64,000 bases of DNA from Deltaproteobacteria bacterium (GTDB lineage: Bacteria > UBA10199 > JADFYH01): positions 40,581 through 104,580 of the forward strand of contig JADFYH010000005.1 in the NCBI GenBank assembly GCA_015233135.1. The letters are read 5' to 3'. The position numbers and the translations under genes are program-made. How positions within the stretch are numbered: the first letter of the stretch is position 1; each line of letters opens with the position of its first letter. Positions 9,885 to 36,214 of this stretch are shown here, one piece after another. Under the pieces are notes generated by a model that ran no database searches, was not told where the DNA came from, and saw only the letters and a program-made list of their open reading frames with translations.

Positions 9885-9930
9885 ATTCACCGCAAAATAT
9901 GCGGAGATTAATCTTGTTTTCGCGGTGAAT
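9885..9930. promoter_or_regulatory. Inverted repeat just upstream of fic
   Basis: ATTCACCGC (9885-9893) and GCGGTGAAT (9922-9930) are perfect inverted copies, with AAAA/TTTT-rich inner flanks. The right arm includes a GTG that could be read as an alternative fic start. It could be an operator or an mRNA hairpin that limits translation. Confidence 0.4.
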
Positions 9931-9948
9931 ATCCCTTATCCTTTTTTC

Positions 9949-11049
9949 ATGTATATTCATGAGAGAAAGCAGTGGCCCCACTTCAGTTGGGATAGTCAAA
10001 GGTTAGGCGCTCTTCTTGCGGATGTGCGACATTGGCAGGGGCGTTTACTTGGAAGGATGGAAGCTCTAGGGTTTTCGCTACGTGAAGAGGCGACACTCAA
10101 GGCCCTCACGCAAGAGGTAGTTAAAACCAGTCAAATTGAAGGTGAAAGTTTGAATACTGAGCAAGTGCGTTCTTCGATTGCCAGGCGCTTGGGTATTAAG
10201 ATTGTGGCCCCCAGACCAGTCGATCGTTCTGTCGAAGGCATTGTTGAAGTTTTACTCGATGCTACCCGTCACTTTGAAAGTCCCCTGACAAAAAAAAGAT
10301 TGTGTGCCTGGCATGCAGCGCTCTTTCCCAGCGGAAGAAGCGGGTTGCGAGAAATTAGTATGGGAGCCTGGAGGGGAAAATCCAGTGGTCCCATGCAAGT
10401 GGTTTCTGGCCCCTACGGACACGAGAAAGTGCACTATGAAGCACCCTCTTATAATCGCCTCGCGAAAGAAATGAAAGATTTCCTCCAATGGTTCAATGCT
10501 GAAAACGAAACAGATCTCCTCCTCAAATCGGCACTTGCTCATTTTTGGTTTGTTACACTTCATCCTTTTGAAGATGGCAATGGACGAATTGCTAGAGCCC
10601 TTGCCGATCTACTGCTTGCAAAATCGGAGGGAAGCCCACAACGCTTCTACAGCCTATCTTCCCAGATCGAAAGCGAACGCGAAGATTACTACGATATTCT
10701 GGAAAAATGCCAGAAGGGATCCCTCGATATCTCACCTTGGATGGAATGGTTTTTGAACTGTTTAAAACGAGCGATTTTAAAATCTGAAGAGACGCTTGAA
10801 GATGTTTTGGGTAAATCAAAATTTTGGAAAATACATGCTGAAGAATTATTCAATGAACGGCAGCGAGCAATCCTCAATCGTCTCTTAGATGGCTTTCAAG
10901 GAAATCTCACTTCCTCCAAATGGGCCAAGCTAGCCAAGTGTTCTCAAGACACGGCCTTGAGAGATCTGAATGATTTGGTGGAACGTAAAATTTTGAAAAA
11001 AAATAATGCGGGAGGACGCAGTACTCATTATCGGCTTATCCTCAGTTAG
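9949..11049 (+). CDS. Fic-family protein with DUF4172-type N-terminus
   Basis: Probable AMP-transferase (FIC fold), 366 residues from the ATG at 9949. That start gives [16 protein letters not shown], the usual beginning of this subfamily; a GTG at 9925 in the same frame lies in an inverted repeat. The N-terminal domain contains TSQIEGE, a good match to the inhibitory helix (S/T)xxxE(G/N), so the enzyme is probably self-inhibited. The catalytic motif [12 protein letters not shown] begins at H205. A C-terminal winged-helix-like segment ([17 protein letters not shown]) suggests DNA binding. Its stop overlaps the convergent cysA stop by four bases. The target is unknown. Confidence 0.85.
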
Positions 11050-12113
11050 CCCATTCCCTCCAAAAAAACCTTCACTGAGCGCGGCTTCACAAACACTTTT
11101 TCCCCTTTTTGAAACAGATCTTTTGAAAATTCATTCTTGTTCATTTCCACTTCAATAAAGGCACCGGTGTCGTGGCGTTTGAGTTCGATGCGCACGCGAG
11201 GGCCGACGGCGATGATGCTTTCCACGGTGGCACTCAGGGCGTTTTCGTCGGTTTTTTCGCGAGTGATTTCCATTTCGTGAGGGCGCACGTAAGCGACGGC
11301 GTTTTTGGCTTCCTGGATGGCGTTGTTGGGAATCTCCAGGGTCATGCCTTCCAAAACCGCTTTGCCTTCCTGAATTCGGCCATGAAATAAATTCACGTCG
11401 CCCAGAAAGTCATATACAAAAGGCGTTGCCGGGTGGTCATAGACTTCCTCCGGAGAACCCACCTGTTCAATCTTGCTTTGGTGCATGATGACGACACGAT
11501 CGGCCACTTCGAGGGCCTCTTCCTGATCGTGGGTCACAAAAATGCTGGTAATTTTGACTTCATCGTGCAGGCGACGCAGCCAGCGCCTCAGATCTTTTCG
11601 AACTTTCGCGTCGAGGGCACCGAAGGGTTCATCCAATAATAAAACAGAAGGCTCTACCGCCAAGGCACGGGCCAAGGCGATACGCTGGCGTTGTCCGCCG
11701 GAAAGTTGCGCGGGATAACGATGGGCCAGGCCTTCGAGTTGCACCATTTTTAAAAGATTCATGACGCGTTCTTGGATTTCACTTTTAGAAGGGCGATTTT
11801 TTCTGGGGCGCACTTGCAGACCAAAGGCAATGTTGTTGAAGACGCTCATGTGTTTGAAGAGGGCATAATGCTGAAACACAAAGCCCACGCGTCTTTGCCG
11901 GGCATCGCGGTAAGTGCTGTCTTCGTCATCAATCATTACCATGCCGCTACTGGGAACCTCGAGGCCGGCGATGAGTCTCAGTAAGGTGGTTTTTCCGGAT
12001 CCCGAGGGACCAATTAAGGCAACGAGTTCCCCCGGATTCACTTTTAAATTGATGTCGTGAAGTGCGGTGAAGTTGCCGAAGTGTTTGTAGAGATGGACTA
12101 TATCAATACTCAT
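11046..12113 (-). CDS. cysA: Sulfate/thiosulfate ABC transporter ATPase
   Basis: A 355-residue ATP-binding subunit that powers sulfate import through CysT and CysW. Walker A is [12 protein letters not shown] (about residues 33-44), the Q loop is in [12 protein letters not shown], the ABC signature is [16 protein letters not shown] and Walker B is [13 protein letters not shown], with the switch His in [10 protein letters not shown]-terminal TOBE-like domain (about 240-355) matches CysA rather than a bare ATPase. It is last in the minus-strand operon cysT-cysW-cysA and is separated from cysW by 123 bases holding two palindromic repeats. Confidence 0.93.
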
Positions 12114-12128
12114 GTGAAATCCTTAAAG

Positions 12129-12236
12129 CTCTCTCTCCCTTGAGGGGAGAGAGTTGGAGAGAGGGTGATAATGGATTCAAATTGATTTCCAGGTATTCCC
12201 CCTCTCCCTGACCCTCTCCCTCCAGGGGAGAGGGAA
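12129..12236. repeat. Paired CCCTCTCCC-family palindromes between cysW and cysA
   Basis: Two copies in opposite orientation: CTCTCTCCC-TTGA-GGGGAGAG followed by GTTGGAGAGAGGG (12129-12165), and the reverse arrangement at 12198-12236. About 33 bases lie between them. The same family recurs at 13970, 23353, 36118, 36174 and 40271. It sits inside an operon without a T-run, so it may modulate or protect the mRNA. Confidence 0.75.
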
Positions 12237-13112
12237 TTATTTTTTTACAGAAACCTTCACTTCCTTTTCCAAAAGTGTTTTTAAAATTAATGTCACCATC
12301 GCCAGCAAGGCCAAAACAGACGCAACGGCAAAAGCGGCGGCGAATTCGTATTCGTTGTAGAGAATTTCAACATGCAAGGGAATGGTGTTGGTCTGCCCAC
12401 GGATATGGCCGGAGACCACGGAGACGGCGCCGAATTCTCCCATCGCCCGCGCGTTGCAGAGGATGACTCCGTAAAGTAAGCCCCATTTGATATTGGGCAA
12501 GGTGATTCTGAAAAAAGTCTGAAGACCGGAAGCTCCCAATACTCGGGCGGCCTCTTCCTCTTCCTTGCCTTGGGCCTGCATCAGCGGGATGAGCTCACGC
12601 GCAACAAAAGGGAAGGTGATGAAAAGGGTGGCGAGTACAATGCCGGGAAGTGCAAACATGATTTTGATATTATGCTCGCTCAGCCAGGCTCCAAACCAAC
12701 CCTGCAAACCAAACAAAAGCACGAAGATCATGCCGGCAATCACAGGGGATATGGCAAAAGGCAGATCAATCAAGGTGAGCAGGATGTTCTTTCCACGAAA
12801 TTCGAATTTTGCCAGACACCAGGCAGCGATGATTCCAAAGATAGTGTTTACCGACACGGCAAGTCCAGCCGTGAGGAGTGTGAGCTTGATGGCCGAAAGG
12901 GCATCGGGCTGAATCAAGGCCGCCCAATAAGCCTCAAGTCCCTTTTGCAAGGCCTCATAAAAAACACTTACCAAGGGGACAATAAGAAAAAGAAGCAGAA
13001 AAGAGAGGGCCAGCAAAATTAACAGCAGCCTGAACCAGAGCGGTTCTTTTTCGGCAATGGAGCGAATTTTAGAGGCGCGAACCACTTCCCAATAATGCGG
13101 ATTTTCACTCAT
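12237..13112 (-). CDS. cysW: Sulfate ABC transporter permease CysW
   Basis: A 291-residue inner-membrane permease with about six transmembrane helices. The cytoplasmic EAA loop that docks on CysA is seen in [44 protein letters not shown] is a typical CysW segment, and the [13 protein letters not shown] ending of the core also fits. Its ATG overlaps the cysT stop by four bases. It forms the channel with CysT and receives sulfate from the periplasmic protein encoded at 15833. Confidence 0.93.
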
Positions 13113-13936
13113 GCCGATCTCCGTGCCTGCCAGGATTGCAGCAGGTTAATGCCAAGCAACAAGGCAAAAGAAGCGACCAGCATCACTAAGGCAATGGCTG
13201 TGGCTCCTGCATAATCGAATTGTTCGAGTTTGGTCATGATGAGCAAAGGGGTAATTTCTGTTTTTAAGGGCATGTTTCCCGAGATGAAGACCACCGACCC
13301 GTATTCTCCCAATGCTCTTGCAAAGGCCAGGGCAAAGCCGGTGAGCAGGGCGGGAAGAAGATGGGGGAAGATTACAGCGGTGAAGGTCTTGAGTCGACTG
13401 GCCCCCAGGCTGGAGGCAGCTTCTTCCATTTCGGGATCCAAATCTTGAATCACGGGTTGCAGGGTTCGAACGACAAAAGGGAGTCCAATAAAAGTGAGAG
13501 CCACCATAATTCCCAAGGGAGTATAGGCCACTTTGATTCCCCATTTTTCGAGAAAATGCCCTATCCATCCATGAGAAGAATACAAGTTGGTGAGGGCAAT
13601 TCCTGCCACAGCGGTAGGCAGGGCAAAAGGCAAATCCACCAAGGCATCAAACACACGCTTTCCGGGAAAGGGATAACGCACCAAAACCCAGGCGACCAGC
13701 AAACCCAGGACGGCATTGATACTGGCGGCAATAAAGGAGGCGCCAAAGGTGAGTTTATAAGAAGCGACCACTCGGGCGCTGGTGACGGTTTGAATGAAAT
13801 CAGACCCACCGAGATGGGCGGTTTTGATGAAAAGCGAAGAAAGCGGAATCAGCACAATGAGGCTTAGGTATAAAACCGTGAGCCCCAGGCTGAGACGAAA
13901 ACCAGGTAAGATGGATCGGGTTTGGATGCGTTTCAT
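13109..13936 (-). CDS. cysT: Sulfate ABC transporter permease CysT (CysU)
   Basis: A 275-residue inner-membrane permease, first gene of the cysTWA operon. About six hydrophobic helices; the EAA loop is [35 protein letters not shown] is the family hallmark that separates CysT from molybdate permeases. Translation starts at the ATG at 13936 with only a weak ribosome site. The operon is transcribed away from the porin and sulfate-binding-protein genes, so the 450-base gap between them must hold both promoters. Confidence 0.93.
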
Positions 13937-13969: not shown

Positions 13970-14010
13970 CCCCTCTCCCTTGAGGGGAGAGGGTTAGGGA
14001 GAGGGTGAAA
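13970..14010. repeat. CCCTCTCCC-family palindrome in the sulfate divergent region
   Basis: CCCTCTCCC-TTGA-GGGGAGAGGG forms a near-perfect stem, followed by TTAGGGAGAGGGTGAAA as in the other family copies. It lies in the 5' leader of cysT. Confidence 0.7.
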
Positions 14011-14074: not shown

Positions 14075-14103
14075 TTGACAAAAATCTAACTTTTCCTTTA
14101 CCC
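14075..14103 (+). promoter_or_regulatory. Candidate promoter of the cysteine leader / porin-sbp operon
   Basis: A perfect TTGACA lies at 14075-14080. At 16-17 bases spacing only TTTACC or TTACCC is found, a poor -10 box, so an activator may be needed. If used, transcription would start close to 14110 and the leader ATG at 14114 would be almost leaderless. This would explain why no Shine-Dalgarno sequence is visible. Confidence 0.35.
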
Positions 14104-14113
14104 CTGTAAAAGC

Positions 14114-14209
14114 ATGTCGGGTCATTTTACACAAACTCTCCTCTCTAAGCCGTACAACACCTGTTGTTGCCGTTGCTGCATGTGCATGTGTATGTGCATC
14201 TGTATCTAG
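14114..14209 (+). CDS. Cysteine-rich leader peptide (31 residues) of an attenuator
   Basis: Short frame ATG (14114) to TAG (14207-14209). Residues 16-31 read TCCCRCCMCMCMCICI, giving nine Cys codons (17-19, 21, 22, 24, 26, 28, 30). Such a run is very unlikely by chance and makes no sense as a structural protein. It sits directly before a set of alternative RNA helices and a terminator, ahead of sulfate-uptake genes. By analogy with trp, his and leu leaders, ribosomes would stall here when Cys-tRNA is scarce. The frame has no clear ribosome site; near-leaderless initiation is possible. The first stall codons (17-19) leave the downstream antiterminator strand free. Confidence 0.8.
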   Translation: MSGHFTQTLLSKPYNTCCCRCCMCMCMCICI

Positions 14210-14326
14210 CCGGTTGCTTAGAGAAGCTCAGATTTTTTGTAAAAGTCTCAATTAAAATCCAGTCTCAATGATAAAGAAGCTCCCCTCTAAGAAATCGGCT
14301 CCCCGGTCACGGTGGAGCTTTTTTTT
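14142..14326 (+). promoter_or_regulatory. Transcription attenuator responding to cysteine supply
   Basis: Four RNA strands can be paired by eye. Strand 1 TCTCTAAGC (14142-14150) pairs perfectly with GCTTAGAGA (14216-14224). Strand 2 (14208-14223) pairs with strand 3 (14285-14300) at 15 of 16 positions, including one G-U and one G-A mismatch. Strand 3 overlaps the 5' arm of the terminator GCTCC-CCG / CGG-T-GGAGC (14298-14318), which is followed by eight T (14319-14326). Stalling on the early Cys codons hides strand 1 and frees strand 2, so 2:3 forms and transcription continues. With ample Cys, the ribosome reaches the stop and covers strand 2, so the terminator forms. This is inferred from sequence only. 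Confidence 0.8.
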
Positions 14327-14389: not shown

Positions 14390-15793
14390 ATGAAAAAAAT
14401 CAAATGGCTTTTAGCGGACCTCATCCTGGGCACAAGTTTAATTACCCTTCCCCAAACAGGCTTTGCAAAAAGCAAAAAAACGGTGACAGAAAATACGAGT
14501 TCCCTTCAAGAACGCATCAACGAACTGGAACAAAATCAAAAAATTCTCCAGCGCAAATGGGAAATCGAGCAAGAAAAAGCAGAACAAAAAGACAAACCCA
14601 AGGAGAGCCTCAATGCCGGCTTCAATAGCAAAGAAGGCTTTTATCTTAAAAGTAGTGAGGGAGGAACCGCCATTCGTTTGAGAGGATTACTTCAGGCCGA
14701 TGGGCGTTTTTTTCTTAACGATGAAGGAGACAAGCTTGTAAATCAGTTTATTGGCCGACGCCTTCGTCCTATTGTGGAAGGCGATATTGGAAAATATTTT
14801 GGTTTCAAGTTTACGCCCGATTTTGGCGGGGGAACCGCAAGCATACAAGATGCCTATGCAGACATCAAACCCTTCAAGGCCTTAAGTTTTCGTGTGGGTA
14901 AATTTACAGCGCCTCTGGGTTTAGAAAGATGGCAATCTTCTGCCAATTTACTTTCTGTAGAACTTGGGCTTCCTACCAATCTCGTTCCCAATCGGGATCT
15001 GGGAGCCCTGGTATTTGGGACTATTGCGGACGGCGTATTTTCGTATTCTGCCGGGGTGTTTAATGGAACAATCGATGGGGGTTCCAACGACACCGATGTC
15101 AGCGACGGAAAAGATGTGGTCGCTCGCCTCTTCGCTCAACCCTTCAAAAACACAAAACTCAAAGCGCTAGAAAAACTTGGAGTGGGCGTGGCTGGAAGCT
15201 GGGGGAGCCAGTTTGGATCTGCCACTACGACAAACCTTGCTTCGCAAAAAAGCAGTGGCCAAAATACTTTCTTTTCTTTTAGGTCGGATGGCACCGCTCC
15301 CAATACTGTGTTTGCAGATGGCGACCGTTTGAGAATTTCACCCCAAGGCTACTATTATGTGGGCCCCTTTGGATTGTTTGGCGAATATGTCCTTTCTTCT
15401 CAAAAGGTAAATCTGGCGGGCGCAAAAACGGACATCGCAAACAAGGCCTGGCAAGTGGCTGCTTCTTATATCCTCACGGGTGAGGAAAGTTCTTTTTCCG
15501 GAATCAAAGTCAAAAACCCCATCAATTTCAAAAAAGGAAACTGGGGTGCTGTGGAATTGGGTGCCCGTTATAATGATCTGAAGATTGATGATGCAGCATT
15601 TCCCGTCTTTGCCGACCCTGCCAAATCTGCTTCCCATGCAAAAGCCTGGGGTGTAGTGGCCAATTGGTATTTGACCAACAATTATAAATTTACGGTAAGC
15701 TATGATCATACAAATTTTACAGGTGGAGCAAGTGGTGGTGCGGATAGAGCGCCGGAGCATGCTTTATTTACAAGATTGCAGGTGGCTTATTAA
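14390..15793 (+). CDS. Porin of the phosphate-selective porin O/P family, probably for sulfate
   Basis: A 467-residue outer-membrane beta-barrel. Signal peptide about residues 1-26 (ending GFAKS), a coiled-coil stretch at about 36-70 (SLQERINELEQNQKILQ), then barrel strands with family features such as AIRLRGLLQADGRFF and FGFKFTPDFGGG, ending in the aromatic LQVAY needed for barrel assembly. The protein contains no Cys and no Met after the initiator. It follows the cysteine attenuator and precedes the sulfate-binding protein by 39 bases, so I infer an anion porin that brings sulfate into the periplasm during sulfur starvation. Confidence 0.85.
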   Translation: MKKIKWLLADLILGTSLITLPQTGFAKSKKTVTENTSSLQERINELEQNQKILQRKWEIEQEKAEQKDKPKESLNAGFNSKEGFYLKSSEGGTAIRLRGLLQADGRFFLNDEGDKLVNQFIGRRLRPIVEGDIGKYFGFKFTPDFGGGTASIQDAYADIKPFKALSFRVGKFTAPLGLERWQSSANLLSVELGLPTNLVPNRDLGALVFGTIADGVFSYSAGVFNGTIDGGSNDTDVSDGKDVVARLFAQPFKNTKLKALEKLGVGVAGSWGSQFGSATTTNLASQKSSGQNTFFSFRSDGTAPNTVFADGDRLRISPQGYYYVGPFGLFGEYVLSSQKVNLAGAKTDIANKAWQVAASYILTGEESSFSGIKVKNPINFKKGNWGAVELGARYNDLKIDDAAFPVFADPAKSASHAKAWGVVANWYLTNNYKFTVSYDHTNFTGGASGGADRAPEHALFTRLQVAY

Positions 15794-17002: not shown

Positions 17003-17863
17003 ATGGATCTCATCAGCAGCCTTAATCAGCTCAGTTCAGAATTCACACCGGCCTTACTCCCCAAGGCCGATCGGGTTTTTTTCTGTCTTGAATCACTTTG
17101 GTTTATACTTTTTCCGGATCATCGTTTTTCGAGTAAATATTTTTTGAAGGATGCCGCCAAAGAGAAAGCCTACTTGGTTTTAAGAGAATGCCGGCAGGAA
17201 TTGGAAAAACAAGTGAGCCTGGCTTTTCAGGCTCAAAAGAAATCCGAGATGGAAGTGAAAACTCTGGTTGAAGATTTTTTTAATACCCTCCCCTCCGTAA
17301 AGAAAAAACTTTTGGACGATGCCCAGGCGGCCCATGAAAGAGACCCCGCGGCAAACAGCATGGATGAAATCATTTTGTGTTATCCGGGTTTTTTGGCGAT
17401 TCTCACCTATCGCCTCGCGCACGAACTCTCCCTCCGCAAGGTTCCGTTGATTCCTCGCATGATGAGTGAATATGCCCACAGCCTCACCGGATGCGATATT
17501 CACCCCGAGGCCAAAATTGGCGAGAAATTTTTCATCGATCATGCCACAGGGACAGTGATTGGACAGACCTCGGTGATTGGAAATGGAGTCACTCTTTTTC
17601 AGGGAGTCACCCTGGGTGCCATGGCACTCAATCCGCCGGGTATTCATAAAAGGCATCCCACCCTTGAAGACGATGTGACCGTCTATGCCAATGCCAGCAT
17701 CCTGGGCGGAGAGACGGTGATTGGCAAAGGCTCTATCATCGGAAGTTTTTGCTGGATCATGAGTTCCATTCCCAAAAAATCCAAAATCAGAATGGCCAAG
17801 CCCCATCTCATTCAGAGCTTTAGTGGAAAAACGAAAGAGTGTATTCCGAATTGGGAAATTTGA
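17003..17863 (+). CDS. cysE: Serine O-acetyltransferase
   Basis: Makes O-acetylserine from serine and acetyl-CoA, the carbon acceptor for sulfide in cysteine synthesis. From the ATG at 17003 it has 286 residues beginning MDLISSLNQL; a GTG at 16973 would add ten. The helical N-terminal SAT domain (about 1-130) precedes a left-handed beta-helix built from hexapeptide repeats, including FFIDHATGTVIGQTSVIGNG and GVTLGAMALNPPG with the catalytic His. The C-terminal tail ends NWEI; an Ile C-terminus is the feature CysK recognises when forming the cysteine synthase complex. The fic gene follows one base after its stop. Confidence 0.92.
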   Translation: MDLISSLNQLSSEFTPALLPKADRVFFCLESLWFILFPDHRFSSKYFLKDAAKEKAYLVLRECRQELEKQVSLAFQAQKKSEMEVKTLVEDFFNTLPSVKKKLLDDAQAAHERDPAANSMDEIILCYPGFLAILTYRLAHELSLRKVPLIPRMMSEYAHSLTGCDIHPEAKIGEKFFIDHATGTVIGQTSVIGNGVTLFQGVTLGAMALNPPGIHKRHPTLEDDVTVYANASILGGETVIGKGSIIGSFCWIMSSIPKKSKIRMAKPHLIQSFSGKTKECIPNWEI

Positions 17864-17864
17864 A

Positions 17865-18614
17865 ATGCATTCACTACTCAAACAAATTGACGAGAAACAG
17901 CGTCAGCTAGCTACTTTTCAGCCCTTCACTCCATCGCTTCAAAAAAATATTCTGGACTACGCTCGTATTGAACTCACCTATAGTTCGAATGCCATTGAAG
18001 GAAACACCTTAAGTCTGCAAGAGACCGCCCTTGTCGTAGAAAAGGGAATTACGGTGGCAGGTAAAACAATTACTGAACACCTGGAAGCAGTGAATCATGC
18101 GAGTGCTTTCGATTATATTTGCACTTTGCAAAATCGGAATAGAAAAGATTTAACTGAAGAAACCCTATTGAAAATTCATGCCCATGTCTTAAAAGGAATA
18201 GGCGATTCCAATGCAGGAATTTATCGTCAGGTTCCCGTGCGTATTTCCGGCTCTCGGGTAGTGATGCCCAATCCCCTAAAAGTTCCTTCTTTAATGCAAG
18301 ATTTTGTGACATGGCTTCAGGGCGATCTCTCTCAACAGGCAGCAACGATTGCAGCGGAGGCGCATTTTAAATTAGTCAGCATTCATCCTTTTGTAGATGG
18401 CAATGGCCGGACAGCACGTCTCTTAATGAATTTATTGCTGATGCAAGCTGGATATCCTCCCGCTTCGATTAAACCCGAAAGTCGATTGGAATATATTCAG
18501 GCGCTTGAAAAAGCCCAACTCGGAAACGGTATGCAAGATTATTACCTGGTGATTTATAAGGCCCTGATTCAATCTCAGGATGAACTCTTAAAACTATTGG
18601 AGGCAAAATCATGA
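17865..18614 (+). CDS. Fic-family protein inside the cysE-cysK operon
   Basis: A 249-residue FIC-domain protein, starting at the ATG one base after the cysE stop and overlapping the cysK ATG by four bases (ATGA). The inhibitory motif SNAIEGN lies near residue 40 and the catalytic motif [12 protein letters not shown] begins at H174, both intact, so it should be an auto-inhibited nucleotidyl (AMP) transferase. It also shows the KVPSLMQDF segment typical of this class. Being translationally coupled on both sides to the two enzymes of cysteine synthesis is unusual. Modification of CysE or CysK is an inference only; a toxin-like or house-keeping role is equally possible. Confidence 0.88.
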
Positions 18615-36117: not shown

Positions 36118-36214
36118 CTCCCTCCCTTGAGGGGAGGGAGTTAGAGGGAGGGTGATACTCAAGTGTTCTCGAGACCACCCTCTCCCTGACCCTCTCCCCT
36201 CAAGGGAGAGGGGA
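36118..36214. repeat. Paired CCCTCTCCC-family palindromes between the tolC-like and RND genes
   Basis: CTCCCTCCC-TTGA-GGGGAGGGAG plus TTAGAGGGAGGGTGA (36118-36154) faces the inverted CACCCTCTCCCTGACCCTCTCC... unit at 36176-36213, about 20 bases apart. Same pair architecture as 12129-12236. Confidence 0.78.

What the first reader, a model, noticed from the sequence alone, without database searches (positions are those of the whole stretch)
14114..14326. Cysteine-codon attenuator controlling a sulfate porin and binding protein
A 31-codon leader with nine Cys codons is followed by three mutually exclusive helices: 14142-14150 with 14216-14224 (9 of 9), 14208-14223 with 14285-14300 (15 of 16), and a terminator at 14298-14318 with eight T. 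The antiterminator uses the stop-codon region and blocks the terminator's 5' arm, as in trp/his/leu operons. Polycysteine upstream frames that sense cysteine are known in mycobacteria (translation-linked), but I know of no described Gram-negative transcription attenuator of this exact build for sulfate uptake. Seen: frame, pairings and genes. Inferred: mechanism.
Basis: partly seen in the sequence, partly recalled or inferred. Interest (0 to 1): 0.93.

Follow-up and report, generated by a model that had tools for sequence, protein, structure and literature searches.

The report
Cysteine-sensing attenuator before sulfate-uptake genes
Ahead of sulfate-uptake genes in this bacterium lies a 31-codon reading frame with nine cysteine codons, followed by RNA strands that can pair in two competing ways; together they likely form a switch that would turn sulfate uptake on when cysteine runs short, and a similar layout recurs in myxobacteria, there also with methionine codons ahead of a methionine-synthesis gene.

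Summary
In detail: 31 codons with nine Cys (14114-14209), strand 1:2 (9 of 9), 2:3 (15 of 16), and a hairpin with eight T before a porin and a sulfate-binding protein. The 2:3 match is rare by chance (3 of 2000 shuffles). Folding with a ribosome footprint predicts antitermination at the first Cys codon and termination at the stop. In the window's class, 4 of 13 genomes with a close binding protein have a Cys leader. In the Myxococcus family, 39 of 96 genomes hold a similar element, 36 before sulfate genes; sister elements before metY carry Met codons instead. Their antiterminator heptamer occurs in all three reading frames. TTGACA sits 38-41 nt before the leader ATG at nearly all sites, so the leader is predicted to be almost leaderless. 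Against: weak U-tracts in many myxobacteria, no convincing terminator in two class-mates, only 3 nt of overlap between strand 3 and the hairpin, most loci not significant in an energy test, no experiment. A Cys attenuator before cysS in Rhodobacterales was already predicted in print. New variant of a known kind.

The parts
14075..14080 (+). TTGACA, predicted -35 element, 39 nt before the leader ATG
   Evidence: Sequence; same spacing in relatives. The hexamer 17 nt on (14098-14103, TTACCC) is a poor -10, and the promoter scan did not report this site
14114..14209 (+). 31-codon leader frame with nine Cys codons; no Shine-Dalgarno-like sequence seen before it, predicted near-leaderless
14162..14203 (+). 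Stretch with the nine Cys codons (codons 17-30), three Met codons among them
   Evidence: Codon list; antiterminator predicted to form for a ribosome at codons 17-28, not at 29 to stop
14142..14150 (+). Strand 1, pairs 9 of 9 with 14216-14224
   Evidence: 62 of 2000 shuffles
14208..14224 (+). Strand 2, begins in the stop codon; pairs with strand 1 or strand 3
14285..14300 (+). Strand 3, pairs 15 of 16 with 14208-14223 (antiterminator)
   Evidence: 3 of 2000 shuffles
14298..14326 (+). Terminator hairpin (14298-14318) and eight T (14319-14326); 14314-14319 can also pair with 14278-14283 as a longer alternative stem
14390..15793 (+). Porin (Porin_O_P family), first gene behind the leader
   Evidence: Pfam PF07396
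15833..16843 (+). Sulfate ABC transporter substrate-binding protein
   Evidence: NF008022, TIGR00971
16973..17863 (+). Serine acetyltransferase-like gene; whether it is in the same transcript is unknown
   Evidence: PF06426
18611..19558 (+). Cysteine-synthase-like PLP enzyme; whether it is in the same transcript is unknown
   Evidence: PF00291
11046..13936 (-). Divergent sulfate permease and ATPase genes (CysA-like 11046-12113, permeases 12237-13112 and 13109-13936)
   Evidence: PF17850 and PF00528 for the first and last; the middle one by its frame only

Best explanation
Window 14114-14326 is predicted to be a classical ribosome-stalling transcription attenuator that would let a porin gene and a sulfate-binding-protein gene be transcribed when charged tRNA-Cys is scarce. 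Shown by the sequence: a leader frame with nine Cys codons, a strand 2 at its stop codon that can pair with strand 1 or with strand 3, and a hairpin with a U-tract just before the genes. Inferred steps: RNA polymerase starts a few nt before the leader ATG and a ribosome loads at once. With enough cysteine the ribosome reaches the stop codon, covers strand 2, the hairpin forms and transcription ends. With little cysteine it stalls at the first Cys codons, strand 2 pairs with strand 3, the base of the hairpin is taken up and transcription goes on. The first Cys codons should matter most; a stall at codon 30 should not antiterminate. An element of the same layout, without detectable sequence similarity to this one, occurs in the Myxococcus family before the sulfate genes and, with Met codons, before metY.
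For: Strand 2:3 match 3 of 2000 by chance. Folding up to strand 3: antiterminator 0.95 with a ribosome at codons 17-27, 0.83 at 28, at most 0.18 at 29-31, 0.00 at the stop. Full leader at equilibrium: antiterminator 0.80 or 0.91 (two footprints) at codon 17, 0.01 with no ribosome, 0.00 at the stop. Cys leaders in 4 of 13 class genomes with a close binding protein. Myxobacterial elements: 39 of 96 family genomes, 36 before sbp. In 46 elements strand 2:3 and 3:4 heptamers pair 7 of 7 in 44 each, strand 2 lies in all three reading frames (37, 5, 4), and L292 changes all three strands together. Met codons in the five metY leaders. Among 80 named porin loci the TTGACA-spaced leader with 3 or more of one residue was found 6 times for Cys and 0 times for ten other residues.
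Against: No transcript, translation or reporter data. Strand 3 overlaps the hairpin by 3 nt and a -6.5 kcal/mol hairpin remains. With no ribosome the two folding models disagree (0.95 up to strand 3; 0.01 for the full leader), and at codons 18-28 the full-leader values range from 0.00 to 0.90. Of 12 loci folded, L286 gives 0.00 at its Cys codons, and L037 and L282 give 0.97 and 1.00 at the stop, against the model. The duplex-energy test reaches 49 of 1000 or fewer only for the window, L036 and L286 of 12 loci. U-tracts are weak in many myxobacterial elements, three T in nine for 14 of 46. L013 and L036 show no convincing terminator. Antiterminator covariation within 16 sequences is weak and one slid control exceeds it. 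The 46 elements were found with a model that spans strand 2, so they lean towards having it. Nine of the 13 class genomes, Corallococcus, and 17 sbp loci from elsewhere show no Cys leader.
Confidence: 0.75

Rival explanations
1. Translation-linked or Rho-dependent polycysteine attenuation, as proposed for actinobacteria: stalling on Cys codons changes translation coupling or Rho access downstream, and the intrinsic hairpin is not the control point.
For: Weak U-tracts in many myxobacterial elements; no convincing terminator in L013 and L036; the near-leaderless poly-Cys frame resembles the mycobacterial ones (PMC4633059 passages; PMC1262725 passages).
Against: The window has a hairpin with eight T; strands 3 and 4 keep pairing in myxobacteria, with a C-G to U-A change in 5 of 16.
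Confidence: 0.15
2. The Cys-rich peptide itself is the functional product, for example a metal- or redox-binding regulator, or a nascent peptide that arrests the ribosome by its sequence rather than by lack of charged tRNA.
For: Leaders within the class share N..C.CC..MC and within Myxococcus ACCCC.APAVG.
Against: Peptides differ between groups while layout and pairing persist; strand 2 is kept in three reading frames; the residue matches the pathway, Cys for sulfate and Met for metY.
Confidence: 0.07
3. Chance: the Cys codons are a repeat-like stretch and the pairings are coincidental.
For: Part of the run is repeat-like (ATGTGCATGTGTATGTGC). The genome has 22 other matches to a poly-Cys codon pattern, and one other short frame read is as Cys-dense. 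Strand 1:2 alone is not rare (62 of 2000).
Against: 2:3 pairing 3 of 2000; Cys leaders before the same genes in three families of the class and in myxobacteria.
Confidence: 0.03

Closest known systems
Classical amino-acid attenuators of proteobacteria (trp, his, leu, thr, phe leaders; recalled, and mentioned in passages of PMC1262725)
   Same: Leader frame rich in the regulated amino acid, competing antiterminator and terminator, genes of that pathway behind it
   Different: Cys (or Met) as control codon, sulfate uptake as target, predicted near-leaderless leader frame
uORFC-8-2 motif before cysS in Rhodobacterales (PMC8632094, passages)
   Same: Tandem Cys codons in a short upstream frame, terminator stem with a U run, predicted ribosome-mediated attenuation, Gram-negative
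   Different: Target is cysteinyl-tRNA synthetase; two Cys codons; alphaproteobacteria. Sequence relation could not be tested: no model of it was at hand
Polycysteine leaderless short frames of mycobacteria (PMC4633059 passages; Canestrari 2020 seen only as a citation) and actinobacterial cys leader peptides (PMC1262725 passages)
   Same: Cys-codon run in a short frame, leaderless, before cysteine or sulfate genes
   Different: No conserved terminator hairpins there and a translational mode reported; here a hairpin with a U-tract
Leaderless leader peptides of Streptomyces lividans (LeuL, TrpL1, MetL; PMC8079986 passages)
   Same: Leader frame starting at the transcript start, some with terminators; a Met-related leader exists
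   Different: Gram-positive; no Cys leader among the eight listed there; MetL lies before metNIQ and lacks a typical terminator

Membership tests
Classical ribosome-mediated transcription attenuator | Leader frame with a run of control codons for the product of the pathway | tested here: met
   Nine Cys codons before sulfate-uptake genes
Classical ribosome-mediated transcription attenuator | Mutually exclusive antiterminator and terminator, switched by ribosome position | tested here: met
   In silico only; overlap of strand 3 with the hairpin is only 3 nt
Classical ribosome-mediated transcription attenuator | Intrinsic terminator with U-tract before the structural genes | tested here: met
   Met in the window; weak in many myxobacterial elements, not found in L013 and L036
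Classical ribosome-mediated transcription attenuator | Leader is translated and read-through depends on charged tRNA | not testable with these tools
   Needs reporters or transcript data
Mycobacterial-type polycysteine leaderless attenuator | Short frame with a poly-Cys run before cysteine or sulfate genes | tested here: met
Mycobacterial-type polycysteine leaderless attenuator | Leaderless transcript | tested here: inconclusive
   TTGACA 38-41 nt before ATG in window, L010, L013 and 44 of 46 myxobacterial elements; poor -10 in the window; no transcript start mapped
Mycobacterial-type polycysteine leaderless attenuator | No intrinsic terminator; control through translation or Rho | tested here: not met
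   Hairpin with eight T in the window
uORFC-8-2 (cysS, Rhodobacterales) | Lies before cysS | tested here: not met
   Porin and sulfate-binding protein follow
Any Rfam leader or riboswitch family | Match at the curated score | tested here: not met
   0 matches in 8 relative loci, none at E up to 1 in L296 200-480; in the window only matches below the gathering score

The most novel reading that the evidence does not exclude
A modular family of leaderless, ribosome-read attenuators governs sulfur supply outside the CysB and SAM-riboswitch worlds: one RNA switch body, reprogrammed by swapping Cys codons for Met codons, sits before sulfate uptake or before methionine synthesis in myxobacteria, and an independently built or highly diverged twin controls the sulfate porin and binding protein in the window's lineage.
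Probability: 0.5. Interest if true: 0.75.

Novelty: new variant of a known kind. Interest (0 to 1): 0.6.

Why it matters
If true, it is a Gram-negative transcription attenuator that reads cysteine to set sulfate uptake, a task known elsewhere for protein regulators (recalled). The Cys/Met pair within one family of elements is a natural codon-swap experiment on what an attenuator senses. The predicted leaderless leader asks whether ribosomes load on a 5' AUG fast enough to couple translation to transcription. Myxobacteria can be grown, so it can be tested directly.

Tried and rejected
Equilibrium terminator probability over 11 loci with a loosely defined helix was uninformative and was replaced. 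Duplex-energy shuffles are not significant for 9 of 12 loci and are reported as evidence against. A search with the L010 leader peptide in 195 genomes of the phylum of G073 gave matches in 162 at E up to 1, best 0.003; the matched places were not read one by one and I treat them as noise. A protein search with the four class leaders found no candidate. A Cys-codon pattern in 46 class genomes matched in 22, among them the L010 and L013 leaders; the other places were not read, and the reversed control pattern also matched in many genomes. Cys-rich frames in L095, L103, L109 and L119 were set aside: none passed the spacing scan; they were not folded. My first upstream scan read minus-strand loci on the wrong side and was redone. 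Three antisense or partial rows of the 49 were dropped before the count of 46. In one search the porin motif missed L173 and L184, whose porins are shown.

Papers: PMC1262725, PMC2965389, PMC13236596, PMC8632094, PMC8079986, PMC4633059 and PMC545781 were seen as passages only. Canestrari 2020 and Vitreschak 2004 were seen only as citations. That I found no Cys attenuator for sulfate uptake in Gram-negatives in print rests on nine searches of open-licence PMC papers; most subscription journals are not in that library.

Full report
What is there. The window lies in a 2.6-Mb genome held as G000. A class-mate contig (G021:C210, 9975 bases) has the length of a record titled 'Deltaproteobacteria bacterium'. 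At 14114-14209 is a 31-codon frame with nine Cys codons. Strand 1 (14142-14150) pairs 9 of 9 with 14216-14224. Strand 2 (14208-14223), which begins in the stop codon, pairs 15 of 16 with strand 3 (14285-14300). A hairpin at 14298-14318 is followed by eight T. Then come a Porin_O_P porin and a sulfate-binding protein, and further on serine acetyltransferase-like, Fic and cysteine-synthase-like genes. Sulfate permease and ATPase genes are divergent on the minus strand.

Chance. 3 of 2000 dinucleotide shuffles reach 15 of 16 for 2:3 and 62 of 2000 reach 9 of 9 for 1:2. A looser duplex-energy test puts the window at 36 of 1000. The frame has the most Cys of 1081 frames of 15-80 codons in the window, but the genome holds at least one other short frame that is as Cys-dense (L203, 8 of 27).

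Switching in silico. With the RNA made up to strand 3, a ribosome at codons 17-27 gives the antiterminator 0.95; at codon 28 it is 0.83, at 29-31 at most 0.18, at the stop 0.00, and with no ribosome 0.95. With the whole leader at equilibrium the antiterminator is 0.01 with no ribosome, 0.80 or 0.91 at codon 17 (two footprints), 0.00 at the stop, and 0.00-0.90 at codons 18-28, where strand 1 is free to compete. The first Cys codons are therefore the predicted control codons. Strand 3 shares only 3 nt with the hairpin and the rest of the hairpin keeps -6.5 of -14.5 kcal/mol, so some termination may remain. Over 12 loci from both groups, the antiterminator at the first control codon is 0.60 or more in 11; L286 gives 0.00. 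At the stop it is 0.39 or less in 10; L037 and L282 give 0.97 and 1.00.

The window's class. Of 46 class genomes held, 13 have a binding protein at least 60% identical to the window's. Four of these have a Cys leader: the window, G037 (L010) and G031 (L013) before sbp, and G005 (L036) before porin and sbp. In the other nine none was seen, though G021 and G013 have little contig upstream. The four leaders align with N, C, CC and MC in common. Strand 2:3 has 10 perfect pairs in L010, 15 with a bulge in L036 and 9 with a bulge in L013. L010 has a GC-rich hairpin and T-rich tail; L013 and L036 show no convincing terminator.

Myxobacteria. A scan of named genomes with the porin alignment (best 80 of 104 kept) showed poly-Cys leaders in Myxococcus and Citreicoccus. 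In the family of G073 (96 genomes; I take it to be Myxococcaceae), 16 of 16 porin loci from g114 and g71 have the leader (the scan missed L177, whose leader is read). In the 14 other loci fetched none was seen, 7 of them cut close to the gene. A covariance model of the 16 searched in 195 genomes of the phylum matched 39 genomes below 1e-7, all of this family: 27 of 27 in g114, 2 of 2 in g71, 3 of 7 in g102, 4 of 6 in g98 and 3 of 4 in g101. Corallococcus-like g100 gave nothing below 0.0029 in 16 genomes. The binding protein follows, with or without the porin, in 36 of the 39. In the three g102 genomes the next large gene, about 300 nt on, is a Peripla_BP_2 binding protein with a FecCD permease (L284 tested), so the target there is unclear. 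Weaker matches in g98 lie before a porin-like gene (L293, L295; L293 27% identical to the window's porin over part of it and without a Pfam or NCBIfam match) and before metY (L294, L296-L299; L296 is TIGR01326, the others by a sequence motif), which is followed in L296 by an alpha/beta hydrolase (metX by recall).

What is conserved. In 46 elements a heptamer GGTGGG[CT] in the leader faces strand 3, which faces strand 4; both helices are 7 of 7 in 44, while L290 and L291 have 6 of 7. The elements were collected with a model spanning strand 2, so they lean towards having it. Strand 2 lies in frame 2, 0 and 1 in 37, 5 and 4 leaders, which speaks for selection on the RNA rather than the peptide. 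The terminator shows C-G to U-A at one pair in 5 of 16 sequences, and in L292 strands 2, 3 and 4 change together. The antiterminator shows only weak covariation within the 16, and one slid control exceeds it. The first Cys pair, or first Cys, begins 20-26 nt before strand 2 in all 41 elements outside the metY group. The metY leaders carry two Met codons, the first 15 nt before strand 2, with one Cys in four and none in L299. The g98 sbp leaders carry two Cys codons only. The model does not match the window, L010, L013 or L036, so the two groups are convergent or too diverged to tell.

Near-leaderless. TTGACA lies 39 nt before the leader ATG in the window and 38 in L010 and L013, and 39-41 in 44 of 46 myxobacterial elements; the other two have TTGCCG and TTGCTA at 36 and 37. 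With a 17-nt spacer the transcript would start a few nt before the ATG. Against: L036 has TTGACG at 46 nt, the window's -10 is poor, and the promoter scan did not report it. In 80 named porin loci this spacing with 3 or more of one residue gave 6 loci for Cys (five Myxococcus/Citreicoccus and L080, a record titled Nitrospirae) and 0 for ten other residues (some loci have little upstream sequence). In 33 sbp and porin loci the same scan gave 2 for Cys (L010, L013), 2 for Lys, 2 for Met, 1 for Asn and 1 for Gln. None of the 17 sbp loci from outside the class and the family of G073 showed a Cys leader.

Against, in short. Weak U-tracts (three T in nine for 14 of 46); two loci where the ribosome at the stop leaves strand 2 free, and one where Cys stalls do not antiterminate; 9 of 12 loci not significant in the duplex-energy test; patchy distribution; no measured transcript.

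Known work. Actinobacterial cys leader peptides without terminators (PMC1262725 passages), mycobacterial leaderless Cys-rich frames (PMC4633059 passages), a predicted Cys attenuator before cysS in Rhodobacterales (PMC8632094 passages) and leaderless leader peptides in Streptomyces (PMC8079986 passages) are the nearest. Cys sensing and leaderless leaders each have precedent. Their use for a sulfate porin and binding protein, with a terminator and a Met-codon sister, was not found in nine searches. Rfam gave no match at its thresholds.

Verdict. It is a new variant of the classical attenuator, and myxobacteria make it testable.

Noticed in passing
window 13984-14005, 12144-12165, 12200-12221, 36178-36199: A 22-base GA-rich repeat (GGGGAGAGGGTTAGGGAGAGGG, 0-3 mismatches) has four copies in the window, one just upstream of the leader; none in shuffles.
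   Followed up: partly
window 17823-18614 and 9925-11049: Two Fic-domain genes flank or interrupt the sulfur genes; one overlaps the ends of the serine acetyltransferase-like and cysteine-synthase-like genes.
   Followed up: no
L286-L299, just before the TTGACA-like hexamer: A palindrome-like box (such as TCCGCTATAACGGA or ATCCGTTATATTGGAT) precedes or overlaps the promoter in the g98 and g101 elements, by eye; it may be an operator, so a second layer of control is possible.
   Followed up: no
L283-L285: In genus g102 the Cys leader element is kept, but the next large gene is a Peripla_BP_2 binding protein with a FecCD permease about 300 nt on; a possible new target or a relic.
   Followed up: partly
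L080 3481-3579: A record titled Nitrospirae has a 32-codon leader ending in CCCICR*, ATG 36 nt after TTGACA, upstream of a porin gene; hairpins follow but no U-tract was seen.
   Followed up: partly
L007 upstream of sbp, L020 and L030: Some other sulfate-binding-protein loci have an Rrf2-like regulator frame directly upstream instead of a leader (named by recall from the frames; not searched).
   Followed up: no
window 14180-14206, L010, L013, L036: Met codons sit among or next to the Cys codons in the class leaders (MCMCMC, CCCMC, PMCM), so these might sense both sulfur amino acids.
   Followed up: no
L033, L034, L080, L095 just before the porin: A small frame with a shared 'V.QIER' motif lies between the upstream region and the porin in several loci; family not searched.
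   Followed up: no
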